Both the position numbers and the translations under genes were made by a program. 51,559 nucleotides of DNA from Trichodesmium erythraeum GBRTRLIN201 (GTDB taxonomy: Bacteria; Cyanobacteriota; Cyanobacteriia; Cyanobacteriales; Microcoleaceae): the NCBI GenBank assembly GCA_018457135.1, contig JAGGDU010000231.1, positions 1,798-53,356 on the forward strand. The letters are read 5' to 3'. The notes beneath the pieces were generated by a model. That model ran no database searches. It was given only the letters and a program-made list of their open reading frames with translations, and was not told the DNA's origin. Below, piece after piece: positions 4,960-11,757 of this stretch. Position 1 is the first letter of the stretch. The number at the start of each line of letters is the position of its first letter.

Positions 4960-5405
4960 AGTTAGGATGAATATATACTAAAGTACCCACTTAAATTTTG
5001 TCATTTTTTTAATTGTGTCATTGTCAATTGTTAAGTCCTAAATATTTCATTTGATTTAATATTTATTAAAAAATACCAATTAAGAAGATAGGATTCAAGT
5101 TATATTAATTACTATGCATTAATATCATAAATATCATAGTTAAGTAGGCAGGCAAAATCTAAATATTCCTCCTCGTACTCTACTACCCTATTTTACAACT
5201 ATTTTTGCCTACCTACTTAAATATAAATCTAACTTTAAGAAGTATACAAAAATAAGGAATTTAAATTAATGTACTTAAGAAATATATATCTAAATAGTTT
5301 TTCATACCTCAAATATATACCAAAAACTTTGACATTCAATGCCCTCCAGAACAGCGCACATGGAGAAAAATTTCCCAGAAAATTCCCCAGAAAATTAGAG
5401 CCCTT
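4960..5405. other. Divergent intergenic region with foldback element
   Basis: This lies between the minus-strand peptidase and the plus-strand operon, so both promoters should be here. It contains the inverted repeat at 5140-5220. The frame of the DUF3326-like pseudogene stays open upstream of 5406, so its real start may lie a little inside this region. No other coding signal was seen. Confidence 0.5.
5140..5220. repeat. 18-bp inverted repeat (MITE-like foldback)
   Basis: The left arm 5140-5157 (TTAAGTAGGCAGGCAAAA) and right arm 5203-5220 are inverted copies with one mismatch in 18 bp, separated by 45 bp. Read from the minus strand the mismatch becomes a G-U pair. It is too far from any gene end and lacks a U-run for a standard terminator. 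A small non-autonomous foldback element or a regulatory hairpin of the divergent region are the main options. Confidence 0.75.
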
Positions 5406-6626
5406 GCCTTGCCTAGTATTCCTATTCGCTTGATTTTAACGAAAGTTGAAGATGATACTCTCACTTTTGAATCAAGTTTCATTGATACTGAGAGAAAGCC
5501 GGTTTAGCCATCATTACTAGACATTAATATTCGTCAACGGGTTTCTAACCAACCTTTTGTGGCAGTTAGTATTATTCCTACAGGAGTAAGAGCTGAAATA
5601 GGAGGTTTTGCCGGAGATGCTACTCCTAGTACTAATCTTTTAGCAACTGCTTGTGACTATCTAATCACTAATCCCAATGCAGTTACAGCATCAGATATCT
5701 ATTTCGCTCAGGATAATGTTCTGTACCTAGAAGGTAATTTAATCTGTCAGTTGCTCCTGGGCAATATTGGGGTAATTCCAGAAAAGCGCAAAAATATTGC
5801 AGCAATTATCGAAAAGCCCAAAGATGAAAGATTTTTAAATAATGTTCTGAATGCTCTCAATGGCTTGCGTGCTGTAGGAGGTATTAATATTGACCCTGTA
5901 GTGGTAACAGGTGGTCCTGTTGAAACTGAATGTACCTATTCCCAGTATGGAAATGCTTCCGGGGAATTTAAAGGGATGGACGAGTTGATGAAGGCTTTGG
6001 ATGTAGTGGAAAAATCTGATGTTAGGGCAGTAGCTTTAATGACCACTTTGCAAGTAGATGACAAAGTACGTCAAGCTTAATACCGAGGAGAATCTATTGC
6101 CAATCCCTGGGGTGGTGCAGAAGCAATTCTGACCCACATGACTACTAATTTCTATCCTTTTACTGCTGCCCATGCTCCCTTGTTATTGGAGTGGGAACAT
6201 ACAGGATTTGGTAAATTAGTAGATCCTAGGGATGGAGCCGAATTAATTTCCAGTGCTTATGTTTGTTCTCCTCTAAATGGTTTAATCAATTCTCCTCGCC
6301 CGGTAAAATTTGATACTCCTTTAGCAGCAGGTGAAACTAGGATATCTGTTGAAAATATTTCCGCAGTGGTAATGCCAGAAACAACTGTAGGAAATATACC
6401 TTTCTTAGCGTCTTTAGACCAAGGGGTTCCTATAATCTTAGTGAAAGATAATACTACGAATTACGATATTACTCCTGAAAAATTACAAATTGAAACTCAG
6501 GGGCATAAAATATATCGTGTAAATAGCTATATGGAAGCGACAGGATTACTGTTAGCTTTACGGAATGGGATTACGATAGAAAGTACAATTCGCCCCATAC
6601 CACAACTTAAGCCAATTTTGCTGTAA
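5406..6626 (+). pseudogene. DUF3326-like protein, broken by two in-frame stops
   Basis: One continuous frame of about 400 codons is interrupted by TAG at 5505-5507 and TAA at 6078-6080. Coding similarity continues without a shift across both stops: ERKPV-stop-PSLLDIN and KVRQA-stop-YRGESIANPWGGAEA. The core VSIIPTGVRAEIGGFAGDAT and NVLYLEGNLICQLLLG matches my memory of cyanobacterial DUF3326 proteins, whose function is unknown. The N-terminus is uncertain because the frame stays open upstream. Both stops could come from glutamine codons by single C-to-T changes, which suggests recent loss. Pieces could be translated separately from GTG 5559 or ATG 6138, but neither has a Shine-Dalgarno. It heads a tight operon; the next gene begins 4 bp after its stop. 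Confidence 0.65.
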
Positions 6627-6630
6627 ATTG

Positions 6631-7953
6631 ATGAATCAAGTATCTTCTACCTATAAGCTGATTGCATCCCACAATCAGGATATTCAGATTAGCCTCTATA
6701 CTCCTGCTCATCAAGGTATTAAAAGTAATGGTCATCGTCTGAGTGCAGAAATTTACCAATATGATGCACCATTTCTGACTCGTCCTCGTACTGAAAATAT
6801 AGAGAAGCATTTCTCTAAGCTGTATGGTACAAAACATACTTTCTGGCTCACAGCAGGAGGTAGTCAAGGAGTTTTAACCACTTGTGCTTTACTAGGTACT
6901 CAGTATAAAAAAGTGGCGATCGCCCTCAATAGTCATATTTCCACTATAAACGGCATCATCTTAGCAGGATTAGAGCCTTATTTTATTGATTCTGAGTCGC
7001 TGATGCCTACTACTGATGAGGTAATTACGGCTTTAGAAACGAGTGGCGTATCAGCACTGTTACTAACTCATCCAAGTTATGAAGGGGTAACTATCGAGCT
7101 TGCCACCATCGCTAATTATTGTCAGAAGCATGGGATAGCTCTAGCAGTAGATGAAGCTCACGGTAGTCATTTTCCCTTTCTTGACGAACAATGGCAATCG
7201 GCAATTAGTGTTGGTGCAGATATAGTTTCCCATAGTATGCACAAATATGCCGGAAGTTTAGTACAAACTGGTTTGTTACATTTACCTAAATCTTCCCAGT
7301 TTAGCACCGAACAAGTGATGGGGGTTTTACCTTTGTTTGAAACTACTACCCGCAGTAATTTGTTGATGCTGAGTCTTGAAGATGCTATTAAAAGGGGGTA
7401 TTCTGAATCAGGCAAGGCTTTATTTGACAAAGCTATTCAAGAGTGCGACCTCCTGCGTAGTCAGTTAGATAGTTATGGTCAGGTTTTAACTTACGATCCT
7501 CAAGTTACCGATCCTCTGAAAATTTATTTAAAGAGCGATCGCATGACAGGGGAAGAGTTAGCAGAATTTTTGTATGAATATGGCATAGATGGGGAATTTG
7601 CAGGAGAGGAGGGATTATTATTAATTTTCTCTTTTCATCACAATCCACAGGATTTCCAATTTATGCGGGAAACTCTGGCTAAAGTTGTAGCAATTTTGAG
7701 GGAAAAACCCATAAAACAGATTGTACCTGACAGTTACTTTTCCCGTCGCCCTCAAATAAATACTTTACCTAAAGATGCTTTCTTTTGCCGGAAAGAAAAG
7801 TTACCCATTGGGGAAGTATTAGGTAAAATTAGTAGTTGTTGGATTAAGAAAGTTCCCCCAGGGAGTCCGATTTTGATACCAGGAGAAGAAGTAACTAATT
7901 GGCACATAGAACGTTTATCTCCTGATACTGTTGTTGAAGTAGTAGGTGCGTAA
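6631..7953 (+). CDS. Orn/Lys/Arg decarboxylase-fold PLP enzyme
   Basis: A 440-residue fold-type I PLP enzyme of the Orn/Lys/Arg decarboxylase major-domain family, in the short form without the N-terminal wing domain. HSMHKYAGSL (201-210) contains the PLP-binding Lys205. DEAHGSHFPF (174-183) carries Asp174, which should pair with the pyridine nitrogen, and TAGGSQG near 74-80 forms the phosphate-binding region. The start is set at ATG 6631 rather than TTG 6628. It lies in a five-gene operon (4 bp after the DUF3326-like gene, 6 bp before a methyltransferase). Known members decarboxylate ornithine, lysine or arginine, but many cyanobacterial copies are uncharacterised. The methyltransferase/CmcI-like context suggests a specialised metabolite rather than general polyamine synthesis; that is inference. 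All key residues look intact. Confidence 0.82.
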   Translation: MNQVSSTYKLIASHNQDIQISLYTPAHQGIKSNGHRLSAEIYQYDAPFLTRPRTENIEKHFSKLYGTKHTFWLTAGGSQGVLTTCALLGTQYKKVAIALNSHISTINGIILAGLEPYFIDSESLMPTTDEVITALETSGVSALLLTHPSYEGVTIELATIANYCQKHGIALAVDEAHGSHFPFLDEQWQSAISVGADIVSHSMHKYAGSLVQTGLLHLPKSSQFSTEQVMGVLPLFETTTRSNLLMLSLEDAIKRGYSESGKALFDKAIQECDLLRSQLDSYGQVLTYDPQVTDPLKIYLKSDRMTGEELAEFLYEYGIDGEFAGEEGLLLIFSFHHNPQDFQFMRETLAKVVAILREKPIKQIVPDSYFSRRPQINTLPKDAFFCRKEKLPIGEVLGKISSCWIKKVPPGSPILIPGEEVTNWHIERLSPDTVVEVVGA

Positions 7954-7959
7954 TTAAAA

Positions 7960-8592
7960 ATGGTCGAAGAACAATCCAAAGATTTCTTAGAAGCAAGACC
8001 TTGGTTATCAGGGATTTGTGATACTCAAAGCACTGAGGAATTAAAAAATAAGTATGATGGTTGGGCTAAGACTTATGATACAGATGTCAGAAAAGATTGG
8101 TTTTTTATGCCTGGTAATATAGCAATAACATTAAGCCAACTGCTTCCTCACAAAGAAACCGCAATTCTGGATGCTGGTGCTGGAACGGGTTTAGTGGGTG
8201 AAGCTTTAGCCCAACAAGGATATACAAATATTACTGCTGTTGATTTGTCAGAAAAAATGCTGGCGATCGCTAAAGAGAGAGAAGTTTACAAGGCTCTCCA
8301 TCACTGTAATTTAGAAGATTCCCAAATTTTTAACAATTCAGTAACTTTTGATGCTATTATTGCAGCAGGAGTTTTTGCTTATGCCCATGCTGGTGTTAAG
8401 GTATTAAACAATCTATTCGGTCTTTTAAGAGAGGACGGAATTTTTTTGTTGACGATACGGGAAGACTATCGCCGTGAAATGCAGATAGCATTAGATAAAT
8501 TACCGTGGACATTAGTCAGTGAAGAAAATTTTACGATCTATGACGAAGCCAAGTTGATGTATCTTCTTGGTTTTAAAAGGGAGGGATATTAA
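7960..8592 (+). CDS. Class I SAM-dependent methyltransferase
   Basis: A 210-residue protein with a standard Rossmann SAM site: ILDAGAGTGLVGEALA (motif I, about 69-84), the acidic ITAVDLS after strand beta-2, and FDAIIAAGVFAYAH as the post-I region. The leading YDGWAKTYD motif is typical of the small WBSCR27-like/UbiE-related group. It starts 6 bp after the PLP enzyme, and its TAA overlaps the next ATG in TAATG, so it is translationally linked to both neighbours. The substrate is unknown. N- or O-methylation of an amine or acid made by the preceding decarboxylase is a reasonable guess from position only. Confidence 0.85.
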   Translation: MVEEQSKDFLEARPWLSGICDTQSTEELKNKYDGWAKTYDTDVRKDWFFMPGNIAITLSQLLPHKETAILDAGAGTGLVGEALAQQGYTNITAVDLSEKMLAIAKEREVYKALHHCNLEDSQIFNNSVTFDAIIAAGVFAYAHAGVKVLNNLFGLLREDGIFLLTIREDYRREMQIALDKLPWTLVSEENFTIYDEAKLMYLLGFKREGY

Positions 8593-9332
8593 TGAATACT
8601 AAAATTGACCAATCCACTCGATCTGAGCAAGAAACCTTGGATAATAAAAGGTTCGTTAAAATCTCCGATCGAGAAGATAGATGTGATATTCCCAAGTCGG
8701 CTTGGAGACCTCTGACAAACAATGCTTATTTACAGACTTGGAAAGGGGTGCTTTTGGAGAAAGACCCTATGCAAATAGCAGCTTATCCGATGCTGCTGCG
8801 GGAGTTACAACCGAAGACAATTATTGAACTGGGTGCGCTCAAAGGGGGAAGTGCAATTTGGTTAGCAGATCACTTAGAATTATTTGGTATTGAAGGTGAG
8901 GTTTACTGTGTTGATAATGACCTTTCTCAACTTGATGAAAAAGCTAAAACAGACTCTAGGATTAATTTTTTAGAAGGTGATTGTCGAGAAATTAATGCTG
9001 TTTTACCCACAGGGTTGCTTGTCTCACTGCCTCATCCTTGGTTAATTATAGAGGATGTTCATGATAATCTAGTTGGTATTCTTAAGCATTTTCATCACAA
9101 TGGTCTGCAAACTGGAGATTACCTGATTATCGAAGACACCAATAAGTTCATGTGGGAAGTATGGTATGATTGGGAAGACCAGGAATTAATTCAGCGAGGA
9201 GGGCGCAAGCTTGATGAATTGAGAAGCTGGTTAATGAAGCATCAAGATGAGTACTTAATCGATGCTTACTATCAAGATATTTACGGTTATAATGCTTCAA
9301 AAAATTGGAATTCTATTTTAAAAAGGATTTAA
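8592..9332 (+). CDS. CmcI-like methyltransferase (cephalosporin hydroxylase family)
   Basis: A 246-residue protein with a SAM-type fold. TIIELGALKGGSAIWLADHL (about 75-94) is motif I, VYCVDND (about 102-108) the acidic strand end, and WLIIEDVHDN and YLIIEDTNKF supply acidic residues suited to metal binding. This layout is that of the CmcI/rhamnosyl O-methyltransferase group (Pfam 'cephalosporin hydroxylase'), which despite the name are metal-dependent SAM enzymes of specialised metabolism. The start overlaps the previous stop by one base (TAATG), and the cupin gene follows 5 bp later. Two different methyltransferase folds in one operon imply two methylation steps or one methylation plus another tailoring step. 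Confidence 0.75.
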   Translation: MNTKIDQSTRSEQETLDNKRFVKISDREDRCDIPKSAWRPLTNNAYLQTWKGVLLEKDPMQIAAYPMLLRELQPKTIIELGALKGGSAIWLADHLELFGIEGEVYCVDNDLSQLDEKAKTDSRINFLEGDCREINAVLPTGLLVSLPHPWLIIEDVHDNLVGILKHFHHNGLQTGDYLIIEDTNKFMWEVWYDWEDQELIQRGGRKLDELRSWLMKHQDEYLIDAYYQDIYGYNASKNWNSILKRI

Positions 9333-9337
9333 ATAAA

Positions 9338-9671
9338 ATGATGAATGAATCTAGAATCAAAGAGATCAAGAACACTTGGCAAAAAAAGGGGTTCAAGTGC
9401 GAAATTTCAATTACTCCGCCTGGAGAGTTTTGGTCAAGTGATGGTCATGAAACAGACGAGATAATTATACCCTTGGAAGGGGAATTAGAATTGTCTTTAC
9501 AAGGTAAAGTCTTTACAAGGTAAAACTTTTCGCTCCACCATTGGGGAAGAAATAATTATTCCTGCTGGTGAACCTCATACATTTAAGAGTGTTGGCAAAG
9601 TAGCTAGTCGTGTGTATTGGCTCTATGGCTACGAACATGAAAAAGGTGTGACTGGAACTCGTGTATCGTAA
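9338..9671 (+). pseudogene. Cupin protein, frameshifted by 16-bp duplication
   Basis: The frame from ATG 9338 reads MMNESRIKEIKNTWQKKGF, then the first cupin motif (GHETDEIIIPLEGELELSLQGK), and hits TAA shortly after the second copy of a 16-bp repeat (9493-9524). Removing one copy restores a continuous protein of about 105 residues: QGKTFRSTIGEEIIIPAGEP, HTFKS, and an ending at GVTGTRVS with TAA at 9669-9671. The second motif keeps PxGxxH. Small cupins act as metal-binding sensors or small-molecule enzymes; no specific role can be given. It is the last gene of the operon. The lesion could be fixed decay or a reversible slippage switch, since loss of one repeat copy repairs the gene exactly. 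Confidence 0.8.
9493..9524 (+). repeat. 16-bp perfect tandem duplication in cupin gene
   Basis: The unit GTCTTTACAAGGTAAA occurs at 9493-9508 and again at 9509-9524 with no mismatch. Sixteen is not a multiple of three, so the extra copy shifts the cupin frame. Confidence 0.95.
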
Positions 9672-10185: not shown

Positions 10186-11757
10186 TTACAAGTTTAGATT
10201 AGCAGTTTCCAAAAGCTCAATAACTGCTGAAACCGCTGTCTGAATCGATCCCTGAACCGAAGCATGATTAATAGCTAAATGTTCCCCCGCAAAGAATACA
10301 CGGGGATTATTTATAGGATAAGGTTGACCAAGAAAAGGTTGATATTTCTCGCGATCGCCAGGGGCAAAATAAGCATAAGAACCAGAACCCGGATTATTAT
10401 CTTCATCCCAAATACTATGAACAACATCATCAGTATATTGTTTAATATTAGGATGTAGTTGTGAAATTTCTTCTAAGGTTAAATCTGTTTTATTTGACTC
10501 ATCTAAAGTAACAAACTTTCTAGAATTATCTTCCCAACGATAAGCAGCAGTTAATACAGATGCCTGATAAGAAATATCTTTATTCTTAACCACAAAATGA
10601 GGTTGAGAAAAATTGTTTCCATCTAATTTAGCATTATCGCAAGGATACCGACACTTTTCAATATTTAAGTCTGTAAAACTGCCCCCACCATAAATATTTT
10701 CTGTAAATTCCCAAGGACGAGCAGTGCAGTGTAATAGACTTTTACTAGAACTACAATAACCTAAATTGTTAATAGCTTCCTGTTGTTTGCTAGGTAAAAT
10801 AGGGTCAAAATTAATCCGAGCTAAAGCAGTAGTTGGAACAGTACAAATAATATAGTCAAATTCTGCAGTCTGTTGCTTATCCAACTTATTCCAGTCAACT
10901 TGAACCCCTTTATCTGTCATCGCTATATTTGTTACTTTTGCTTCAGTCTCAATTTTTCCTGATATTCTTTTAACCAAAGCCTTAATTAAAGTTTCCATTC
11001 CTCCAATTAATTCATATTGTTCAACTTGATGCCAAGCAAAGAAGTCAATTAAACCATTTAATAGAGAAACTTTTTCATAATGAATTGCTCCAGTAGCATG
11101 ACCTAACAACTGAAAAGCATCGGGAGAAAGATGACTACAAAAATAGTCAGTAACTGTTAAATCATCCCATTTTCTAACTCGATCGCTGGTAAAAGTAGGC
11201 GCAAATAACTCCCATTTCTCCTGTTCAGAGAAAGAATTAATTAACTCTGACAATAACTGGTCGTAAATTACCCCAGGGTCTTCTTTTTCATCAGAGGTTA
11301 AATTATAAACAGAAAAAAGTTCTTGATAATTATCTAAACGAGTTTTCTTTCCCCTCAGGTAATAAAAAGTTGCAGGATTGTAATTAATAAAAGGTCTTTT
11401 TGGTAACTTAAACTTATCTATATAATGTAAAGTGCAACCATGACTTGTAGGAATCCGCATTGCACCTAACTCTCCATAAGTTCCATCACTAAAATAATGA
11501 GTCTTAATCCTTCCTCCTAAGCGATAATCAGACTCTAATAAAGTAACTTTATGGTTTAGTTGACTTAGTTCGTAAGCACTAACAAGTCCGGCAATTCCTC
11601 CGCCAATAATTGCAACTTGTTTGCGAGTACCGCCCTGGTCATAGGGAATAAGAGAACCAGGATGACTATACAAGCGTTCAAAAGAAAATGGACTATCTAA
11701 CTCTAAAATGTGATTATACATATATCGAGAGTACAAAGTGATGGCTAAAAAAAACAT
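10186..11757 (-). CDS. Flavin monoamine oxidase / L-amino-acid oxidase family
   Basis: A 523-residue FAD enzyme. VAIIGGGIAGLVSAYEL (about 48-64) is the dinucleotide-binding GxGxxG motif, LLESDYRLGGRI (about 73-84) the conserved GG-R segment, and FFAGEHLAINHASVQGSIQTA near the C-terminus the FAD-closing motif. This architecture covers monoamine oxidases and L-amino-acid oxidases; GELGAMRIP and the overall length lean toward the latter. Expected products are an imino/keto acid, ammonia and hydrogen peroxide. The first ATG (11757) sits just after a CCCC/GGGG hairpin; ATG 11721 (MYNHILELDS) is an equally good start. It has no signal peptide. It converges on the decarboxylase operon, so a shared amino-acid substrate is possible but unproven. 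Confidence 0.8.
   Translation of the reverse strand: MFFLAITLYSRYMYNHILELDSPFSFERLYSHPGSLIPYDQGGTRKQVAIIGGGIAGLVSAYELSQLNHKVTLLESDYRLGGRIKTHYFSDGTYGELGAMRIPTSHGCTLHYIDKFKLPKRPFINYNPATFYYLRGKKTRLDNYQELFSVYNLTSDEKEDPGVIYDQLLSELINSFSEQEKWELFAPTFTSDRVRKWDDLTVTDYFCSHLSPDAFQLLGHATGAIHYEKVSLLNGLIDFFAWHQVEQYELIGGMETLIKALVKRISGKIETEAKVTNIAMTDKGVQVDWNKLDKQQTAEFDYIICTVPTTALARINFDPILPSKQQEAINNLGYCSSSKSLLHCTARPWEFTENIYGGGSFTDLNIEKCRYPCDNAKLDGNNFSQPHFVVKNKDISYQASVLTAAYRWEDNSRKFVTLDESNKTDLTLEEISQLHPNIKQYTDDVVHSIWDEDNNPGSGSYAYFAPGDREKYQPFLGQPYPINNPRVFFAGEHLAINHASVQGSIQTAVSAVIELLETANLNL

What the first reader, a model, noticed from the sequence alone, without database searches (positions are those of the whole stretch)
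5406..9671. Possibly undescribed five-gene amino-acid-derived metabolite operon, now decaying
Seen: DUF3326-like gene, PLP decarboxylase-fold enzyme, small SAM methyltransferase, CmcI-like enzyme and cupin, with gaps of 4, 6, -1 and 5 bp. The first and last genes are broken, the three inner ones intact. Known: CmcI-type enzymes act in specialised metabolism and DUF3326 has no function I know of. Inference: a pathway that decarboxylates an amino acid, methylates the product and tailors it, with the facing flavin oxidase as a possible partner. I know of no described pathway with this gene set.
Basis: partly seen in the sequence, partly recalled or inferred. Interest (0 to 1): 0.7.

Follow-up and report, generated by a model that had tools for sequence, protein, structure and literature searches.

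The report
Undescribed decarboxylase-linked cyanobacterial metabolite operon
A Trichodesmium genome carries a partly broken copy of a metabolite gene cluster that is intact in other cyanobacteria; its core pairs an amino-acid decarboxylase with a protein family of unknown function whose relatives also sit beside unrelated decarboxylases in viral contigs.

Summary
In detail: window 5310-9671 carries DUF3326 (broken), a PLP decarboxylase-family gene, a small methyltransferase, a CmcI-like methyltransferase and a cupin (broken), with the stated gaps. The genome shares a genus with a named Trichodesmium MAG.

It is a real, patchy cluster. Close PLP relatives occur in 17 of 388 genomes of the order, among them Okeania, Moorena, Prochloron and Anabaena; Rhizonema adds one. 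DUF3326 lies upstream of the PLP gene, same strand, in 19 of 19 loci; nine keep the five-gene order, insertions allowed. The constant core is DUF3326-PLP; methyltransferases, cupins, oxygenases, a transporter or radical-SAM genes vary.

The facing flavin oxidase (L-amino-acid-oxidase-like) occurs in 15 of 388 genomes, 14 of which have the PLP gene. And DUF3326, near-universal in the phylum as a different copy, sits beside non-homologous SpeD-like or PSD-like decarboxylases in 18 of 20 IMG/VR contigs, but beside none in 14 other cellular loci checked. So these DUF3326 subfamilies probably act just before or after an amino-acid decarboxylation. Reaction and product are unknown. Decay is partial: DUF3326 is broken in 6 of 19 loci, the PLP gene in none.

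The parts
5310..6626 (+). DUF3326 (PF11805) paralogue, pseudogene: in-frame stops at 5505-5507 and 6078-6080, no usual start codon at the expected place, extra residues near the N-terminus
   Evidence: Pfam; tblastn of the intact Moorena protein, 89% identity; translation
6628..7953 (+). PLP-dependent Orn/Lys/Arg decarboxylase-family enzyme, 441 aa, open (ATG at 6631)
   Evidence: OKR_DC_1 88 bits; PDB relative 2x3l E 8e-28; S-x-H-K and DE[AS]H motifs in 21 of 21 operon copies
7960..8592 (+). small SAM-dependent methyltransferase, 210 aa, open
   Evidence: Methyltransf_11 54 bits; downstream of PLP in 12 of 19 loci
8592..9332 (+). CmcI/rhamnosyl O-methyltransferase-like protein, 246 aa, open
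   Evidence: RMNT_CmcI 54 bits; CmcI structures 2br3/2bm8 E 4e-23 and 2e-22; in 10 of 19 loci
9338..9671 (+). small cupin, interrupted: reading frame stops at 9521-9523, the rest continues in another frame
   Evidence: intact relative Cupin_2 43 bits; cupin in 10 of 19 loci
10186..11757 (-). flavin amine/L-amino-acid oxidase, open, facing the operon; co-occurring partner
   Evidence: Amino_oxidase 192 bits; LAAO structures E down to 1.7e-46; co-occurrence

Best explanation
The window holds a partly broken copy of a horizontally patchy cyanobacterial biosynthetic gene cluster. Its core is a two-gene module, a DUF3326 paralogue and a PLP decarboxylase of the Orn/Lys/Arg family, usually accompanied in the genome by an L-amino-acid-oxidase-like flavoenzyme. 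Proposed working (inferred): an amino acid, free or modified, is decarboxylated by the PLP enzyme; DUF3326 carries out the step directly before it (preparing the amino acid) or after it (converting the amine); the oxidase makes an imine or keto acid from an amino acid of the same pathway; the two methyltransferases and the cupin, or other oxygenases in other strains, decorate the product. In this Trichodesmium the pathway is probably off or altered because DUF3326 and the cupin are broken, while the remaining genes are still open. Shown: gene content, order, co-occurrence, broken genes. Inferred: every chemical step.
For: DUF3326 upstream of PLP, same strand, in 19 of 19 loci: directly next to it in 14, one PhyH gene between in 4, four genes between in 1. 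PLP relatives are rare: 17 of 388 genomes at E <= 1e-70; in the phylum draw 5 of 386 are far above the rest (best 4.7e-140 or better, then 5.7e-60). Operon PLP forms one clade, operon DUF3326 one clade. Oxidase in 15 of 388 genomes, 14 with the PLP gene, Fisher 6e-22 without correction for kinship, seven families represented. Related DUF3326 genes sit beside SpeD-like (14) or PSD-like (4) decarboxylases in 18 of 20 IMG/VR loci. PLP motifs kept in 21 of 21 copies. dN/dS 0.15-0.19 for the window PLP gene against five relatives. Neighbouring open genes elsewhere are typical tailoring enzymes: PhyH, TauD, Rieske, FkbM, radical SAM, NRPS.
Against: No substrate, reaction or product was shown. DUF3326 in its housekeeping form (9 loci) and in a third subfamily (5 loci) has no relative of the PLP, SpeD or PSD queries nearby (only BLAST against those queries), so decarboxylase pairing is a property of subfamilies, not of the family. 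DUF3326 is broken, truncated or a remnant in 6 of 19 loci while PLP is open in all 21 copies, which fits badly with DUF3326 being indispensable. Three PLP genomes (G030, G542, G233) lack the oxidase at E <= 1e-120, and G597 has the oxidase without the PLP gene. Two of 20 viral loci (L089, L091) show no decarboxylase. The fold of DUF3326 gave no significant structural relative.
Confidence: 0.62

Rival explanations
1. A polyamine-type side pathway: the PLP enzyme is an ordinary lysine, ornithine or arginine decarboxylase and DUF3326 works on the resulting diamine or agmatine; the neighbours make a modified polyamine.
For: PLP family is Orn/Lys/Arg decarboxylase. SpeD homologues of phages and bacteria are reported to decarboxylate arginine or ornithine (PMC10407285 and PMC9992855: abstract starts and passages seen). 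Okeania hirsuta has a nearby aminotransferase most like the gamma-hydroxyarginine cyclodehydratase GntC (199 bits, below its cut-off 415).
Against: No agmatinase, deiminase or aminopropyltransferase was recognised in the loci examined. The operon PLP proteins are far from the other decarboxylase-family proteins of the phylum. PSD-type decarboxylases as partners do not point to polyamines.
Confidence: 0.25
2. The genes are neighbours without a joint pathway: a drifting island of methyltransferases and oxygenases that happens to keep DUF3326 and PLP together, and the oxidase travels with the same lineages.
For: Content beyond DUF3326-PLP varies strongly; several copies of DUF3326 are broken; the CmcI gene of the window is nearer to Moorena and Prochloron (86-87% nucleotide identity) than to Okeania SIO2C9 (75%), whereas its PLP gene is nearer to Okeania, so the cluster is mosaic.
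Against: 19 of 19 order conservation, gaps of a few bases in many loci, 14 of 15 co-occurrence of the oxidase although it is 645 kb away in G486 and on another contig in six genomes.
Confidence: 0.1
3. The window copy is still functional with a broken DUF3326 because another paralogue (C46, or the housekeeping copy on C74) supplies the activity.
For: The own genome has two further DUF3326 genes, both open. DUF3326 lesions differ between lineages while PLP stays open.
Against: The C46 copy belongs to a different subfamily linked to a sulfotransferase. Of five other lineages with a damaged operon DUF3326, only G492 has both an intact operon-type copy and a third-subfamily copy; G589, G405 and G644 show only the housekeeping copy besides the operon gene, and G595 only the housekeeping copy besides the two pieces.
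Confidence: 0.15

Closest known systems
Orn/Lys/Arg decarboxylase family, short type (S. aureus 2x3l; Bacillus YaaO-like)
   Same: PLP fold, S-x-H-K lysine motif, C-terminal OKR domain traces, about 440-490 aa
   Different: One separate clade; always beside a DUF3326 paralogue; substrate unknown. Only the 2x3l comparison was run; YaaO appears in a plasmid hit at 28%
Housekeeping DUF3326 of cyanobacteria (reported next to fed3 and duf650, PMC4284462, one passage seen)
   Same: Same Pfam family, 28-29% identity to the operon type in the cyanobacterial loci compared
   Different: About 350-380 aa instead of 436, separate clade, no decarboxylase found nearby
SpeD-type pyruvoyl arginine/ornithine decarboxylases of phages and bacteria (PMC9992855, PMC10407285; passages seen)
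   Same: A decarboxylase that is the neighbour of a DUF3326 gene
   Different: No homology to the PLP enzyme; the passages seen do not mention DUF3326, and the library search for that word lists neither paper
CmcI / rhamnosyl O-methyltransferases
   Same: Pfam RMNT_CmcI; D and ED positions aligned with CmcI; their role as metal ligands is recalled
   Different: Below the NCBIfam cut-off (53 of 400 bits); no cephamycin context
L-amino-acid oxidases (snake venom type, VioA-like)
   Same: Amino_oxidase fold; GAMR arginine and the tyrosine of the YP stretch aligned (carboxylate-binding role recalled)
   Different: Tied to the DUF3326-PLP cluster; substrate unknown

Membership tests
OKR_DC_1 decarboxylases (PF01276) | Pfam score above cut-off | tested here: met
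   88.2 bits against 27
OKR_DC_1 decarboxylases (PF01276) | PLP lysine motif S-x-H-K and aspartate motif DE[AS]H | tested here: met
   21 of 21 operon copies
OKR_DC_1 decarboxylases (PF01276) | C-terminal OKR domain | tested here: inconclusive
   23.5 bits against 24.2
OKR_DC_1 decarboxylases (PF01276) | decarboxylase activity | not testable with these tools
   needs assay
Known lysine/ornithine/arginine decarboxylase equivalogs | score above an NCBIfam equivalog or subfamily cut-off | tested here: not met
   best decarboxylase model LdcC 20 of 968 bits
DUF3326 (PF11805) | Pfam score above cut-off | tested here: met
   128.8 and 83.6 bits for the two pieces, cut-off 25
RMNT_CmcI (PF04989) | Pfam score above cut-off | tested here: met
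   54.0 against 23.2
Rhamnosyl O-methyltransferase equivalog (NF045824) | NCBIfam cut-off | tested here: not met
   53 against 400 bits
L-amino-acid oxidases | fold and aligned Arg/Tyr of the carboxylate site | tested here: met
   the role of the two residues is recalled
L-amino-acid oxidases | activity on an L-amino acid rather than an amine | not testable with these tools
   needs assay
Known biosynthetic gene cluster class | described cluster with DUF3326 or this gene set | tested here: not met
   library searches: only 2 papers hold DUF3326 (one passage of one read, the other seen in the listing only); the other searches were read as listings. No BGC database was at hand

The most novel reading that the evidence does not exclude
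DUF3326 subfamilies catalyse an undescribed reaction that is obligately coupled to amino-acid decarboxylation, and evolution has joined them with three unrelated decarboxylase folds (PLP type in cyanobacterial clusters, SpeD-like and PSD-like in viral contigs). The cyanobacterial version, with an L-amino-acid oxidase, founds a new class of alkaloid-like gene clusters without PKS, NRPS, RiPP or terpene core.
Probability: 0.4. Interest if true: 0.8.

Novelty: new variant of a known kind. Interest (0 to 1): 0.62.

Why it matters
DUF3326 is present in 381 of 386 sampled genomes of the phylum, and no function was found for it in the library searched. The decarboxylase pairing gives the first concrete lead on its chemistry that I could find. 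The cluster is a compact, defined gene set in cultured or culturable genera (Moorena, Okeania, Anabaena) that can be tested by gene removal and metabolite comparison. It also links uncultivated phages to the same chemistry.

Tried and rejected
Rejected: DUF3326 as a rare gene of this operon only. A shallow six-sequence structure model, pLDDT 35, was replaced by a 25-sequence model, pLDDT 87. Structure comparison gave nothing with E <= 0.001 in the PDB (1146 weak matches) or BFVD (587 weak matches); best E 6.7e-3 to Argonaute MID parts, which I read as a common Rossmann-like piece. Sequence search of solved structures with DUF3326: best E 0.34, taken as chance. Named phages: no DUF3326 relative with three queries (with two of them; 87, 88; four searches in all, queries L092, L043, L093, L088); plasmids: none with two DUF3326 queries. 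Single-protein viral scans returned only the query's own record. Compensation by another DUF3326 paralogue: not general. dN/dS cannot date the decay, since pairwise values average over the whole branch. Literature.

Limits: whole-genome searches score only a few candidates per genome (up to 4 for PLP, up to 3 for the oxidase). Genome draws are samples (386 or 388). Several loci come from MAGs, so some lesions could be assembly errors. The DUF3326 tree used 62 of 86 sequences (housekeeping cyanobacterial copies capped at 14, L008 left out); both trees are quick searches with SH-aLRT only. The PKS/NRPS reading of the two Rhizonema genes is by eye. The regular expression for the SpeD cleavage site matched 9 of 14, while F[ST]C matched 14 of 14; G-S-Q-T matched 4 of 4 PSD-like and the H-x-I-H-S-P motif 2 of 4.
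Full report
What is there. The window lies in a 7.2 Mb genome that the genome search places in one genus with G644; G644 has the same match coordinates as the Trichodesmium sp. MAG_R04 record L039, so the window is Trichodesmium by that comparison. On the + strand stand DUF3326 (broken), a PLP decarboxylase-family gene, a small methyltransferase, a CmcI-like methyltransferase and a small cupin (broken), with gaps of 4, 6, -1 and 5 bp, and a flavin oxidase facing them. The lesions of DUF3326 are two in-frame stops, no usual start codon and extra residues near the N-terminus; the cupin changes frame.

Is it a conserved cluster? In 386 genomes of the phylum 187 have some PLP match at E <= 1e-40, but only five (G000, G358, G087, G233, G030) are close, with best E 4.7e-140 or better; the next is 5.7e-60 and 34% identical. 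In 388 genomes of the order 17 have a close match. A scan of named genomes gave nine loci: Okeania hirsuta, Trichodesmium MAG_R04, two further Okeania, Moorena bouillonii, Moorena SS36440, Prochloron didemni, Anabaena FACHB-1237 and Rhizonema. I mapped 19 loci: 18 from the 17 genomes (G492 has two) plus Rhizonema. In 19 of 19 DUF3326 lies upstream of PLP on the same strand: directly in 14, with one PhyH gene between in 4 and with four genes between in 1. MT11 lies downstream of PLP in 12, CmcI is present in 10, cupin in 10; the order DUF3326-PLP-MT-CmcI-cupin, insertions allowed, is kept in 9, and without inserted genes in 3 (window, Prochloron, Anabaena). Some stretches end at contig ends, so these are lower bounds.

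What varies. Around the core stand PhyH and TauD dioxygenases, Rieske oxygenases, an FkbM methyltransferase, an EamA transporter, FAD oxidoreductases, a class II aldolase, 2-hydroxyacid dehydrogenases, an aminotransferase most like GntC, a PRMT-like methyltransferase, an NRPS module (G030) and, in G481, six tandem genes of 509-537 aa between PLP and the oxidase. Two of the six were scanned and match Radical_SAM just below its cut-off (29.1 and 27.5 of 29.5 bits). This is the picture of a specialised-metabolite cluster with exchangeable tailoring.

The oxidase. It occurs in 15 of 388 genomes at E <= 1e-120; 14 of these also have the PLP gene (17 genomes); 3 PLP genomes lack it (G030, G542, G233) and 1 genome has it alone (G597, a Trichodesmium where one of its two copies has stops). 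Fisher's test gives 6e-22, but it ignores kinship; the shared genomes fall in seven families. In 7 of the 14 it is within about 13 kb of the PLP gene, in G486 it is 645 kb away, and in 6 it lies on another contig. Its best solved relatives are L-amino-acid oxidases, with the GAMR arginine and a tyrosine aligned.

DUF3326. The family is in 381 of 386 genomes of the phylum; the operon type is a separate clade with SH-aLRT 100. Relatives found in IMG/VR (20 loci; five of them are the records) have a decarboxylase-family gene beside them in 18: 14 SpeD-like and 4 PSD-like, 17 of them overlapping or within 65 bp, the eighteenth separated by a 260-aa ORF with NUMOD3 motifs. Six of the 18 were confirmed by Pfam, the others by phmmer (worst E 4.9e-25). 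Phage hallmark genes were seen in three contigs (portal in two, primase in one). Exceptions are L089 (beside a glutamate/leucine dehydrogenase family gene) and L091. Against a general rule: 9 housekeeping loci and 5 loci of a third subfamily showed no BLAST match to the PLP, SpeD or PSD queries. The third subfamily instead lies between a Sulfotransfer_5 gene and a 279-283-aa gene of no Pfam family in three loci (L130, L183, L186). The predicted fold (pLDDT 87) has no significant relative in the PDB or BFVD.

Decay. DUF3326 is interrupted, truncated or a remnant in 6 of 19 loci, with differing lesions: window (two stops), Okeania SIO3B5 (stop near residue 32), O. hirsuta (frame change between residues 213 and 244), Trichodesmium MAG_R04 (residues 310-436 left), Prochloron (stop near residue 21, the rest open), G492 C12 (residues 343-436 left; G492 has an open copy on C51). 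PLP is open in all 21 copies. For the window PLP gene dN/dS against five relatives is 0.15-0.19; two other pairs give 0.136 and 0.139. So decay is real but partial, and it hits DUF3326 first; I cannot explain why.

Mechanism. Best reading: an amino-acid-derived small molecule; decarboxylation by the PLP enzyme; DUF3326 acting directly before or after it; the oxidase acting on an amino acid of the same pathway; methylation and cupin-assisted tailoring. Only the gene associations are shown. Library searches found no description of this set (read as listings, plus one passage).

Noticed in passing
L130:5192-8464, L183:5951-9009, L186:5569-8459: A third DUF3326 subfamily lies between a sulfotransferase gene and a 279-283-aa gene without Pfam match in the window's own genome (C46), in G613 (same genus) and in G492.
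   Followed up: partly
L185:6757-16541: Six tandem genes of 509-537 aa in G481 lie between the oxidase and PLP-DUF3326; the two scanned match Radical_SAM just below cut-off and carry a CxxxCxxC stretch.
   Followed up: partly
L104:813-1595: A homing-endonuclease-like ORF (NUMOD3) has come between the SpeD-like gene and DUF3326.
   Followed up: no
L046:1-9996: In Rhizonema DUF3326-PLP directly follows two genes of 1445 and 1444 aa that look like PKS and NRPS (by eye, not scanned).
   Followed up: no
window 8592-9332: The window's CmcI gene is nearer to Moorena and Prochloron than to Okeania SIO2C9, unlike its PLP gene, which suggests a mosaic cluster.
   Followed up: partly
G597:C988: Another Trichodesmium genome has two adjacent oxidase copies, one with stops, and no close PLP gene.
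   Followed up: no
window 14676-44390: Downstream lie large genes that look like ABC export, glycosyltransferase, coiled-coil, RTX-like repeat and type I secretion genes (by eye, not scanned).
   Followed up: no
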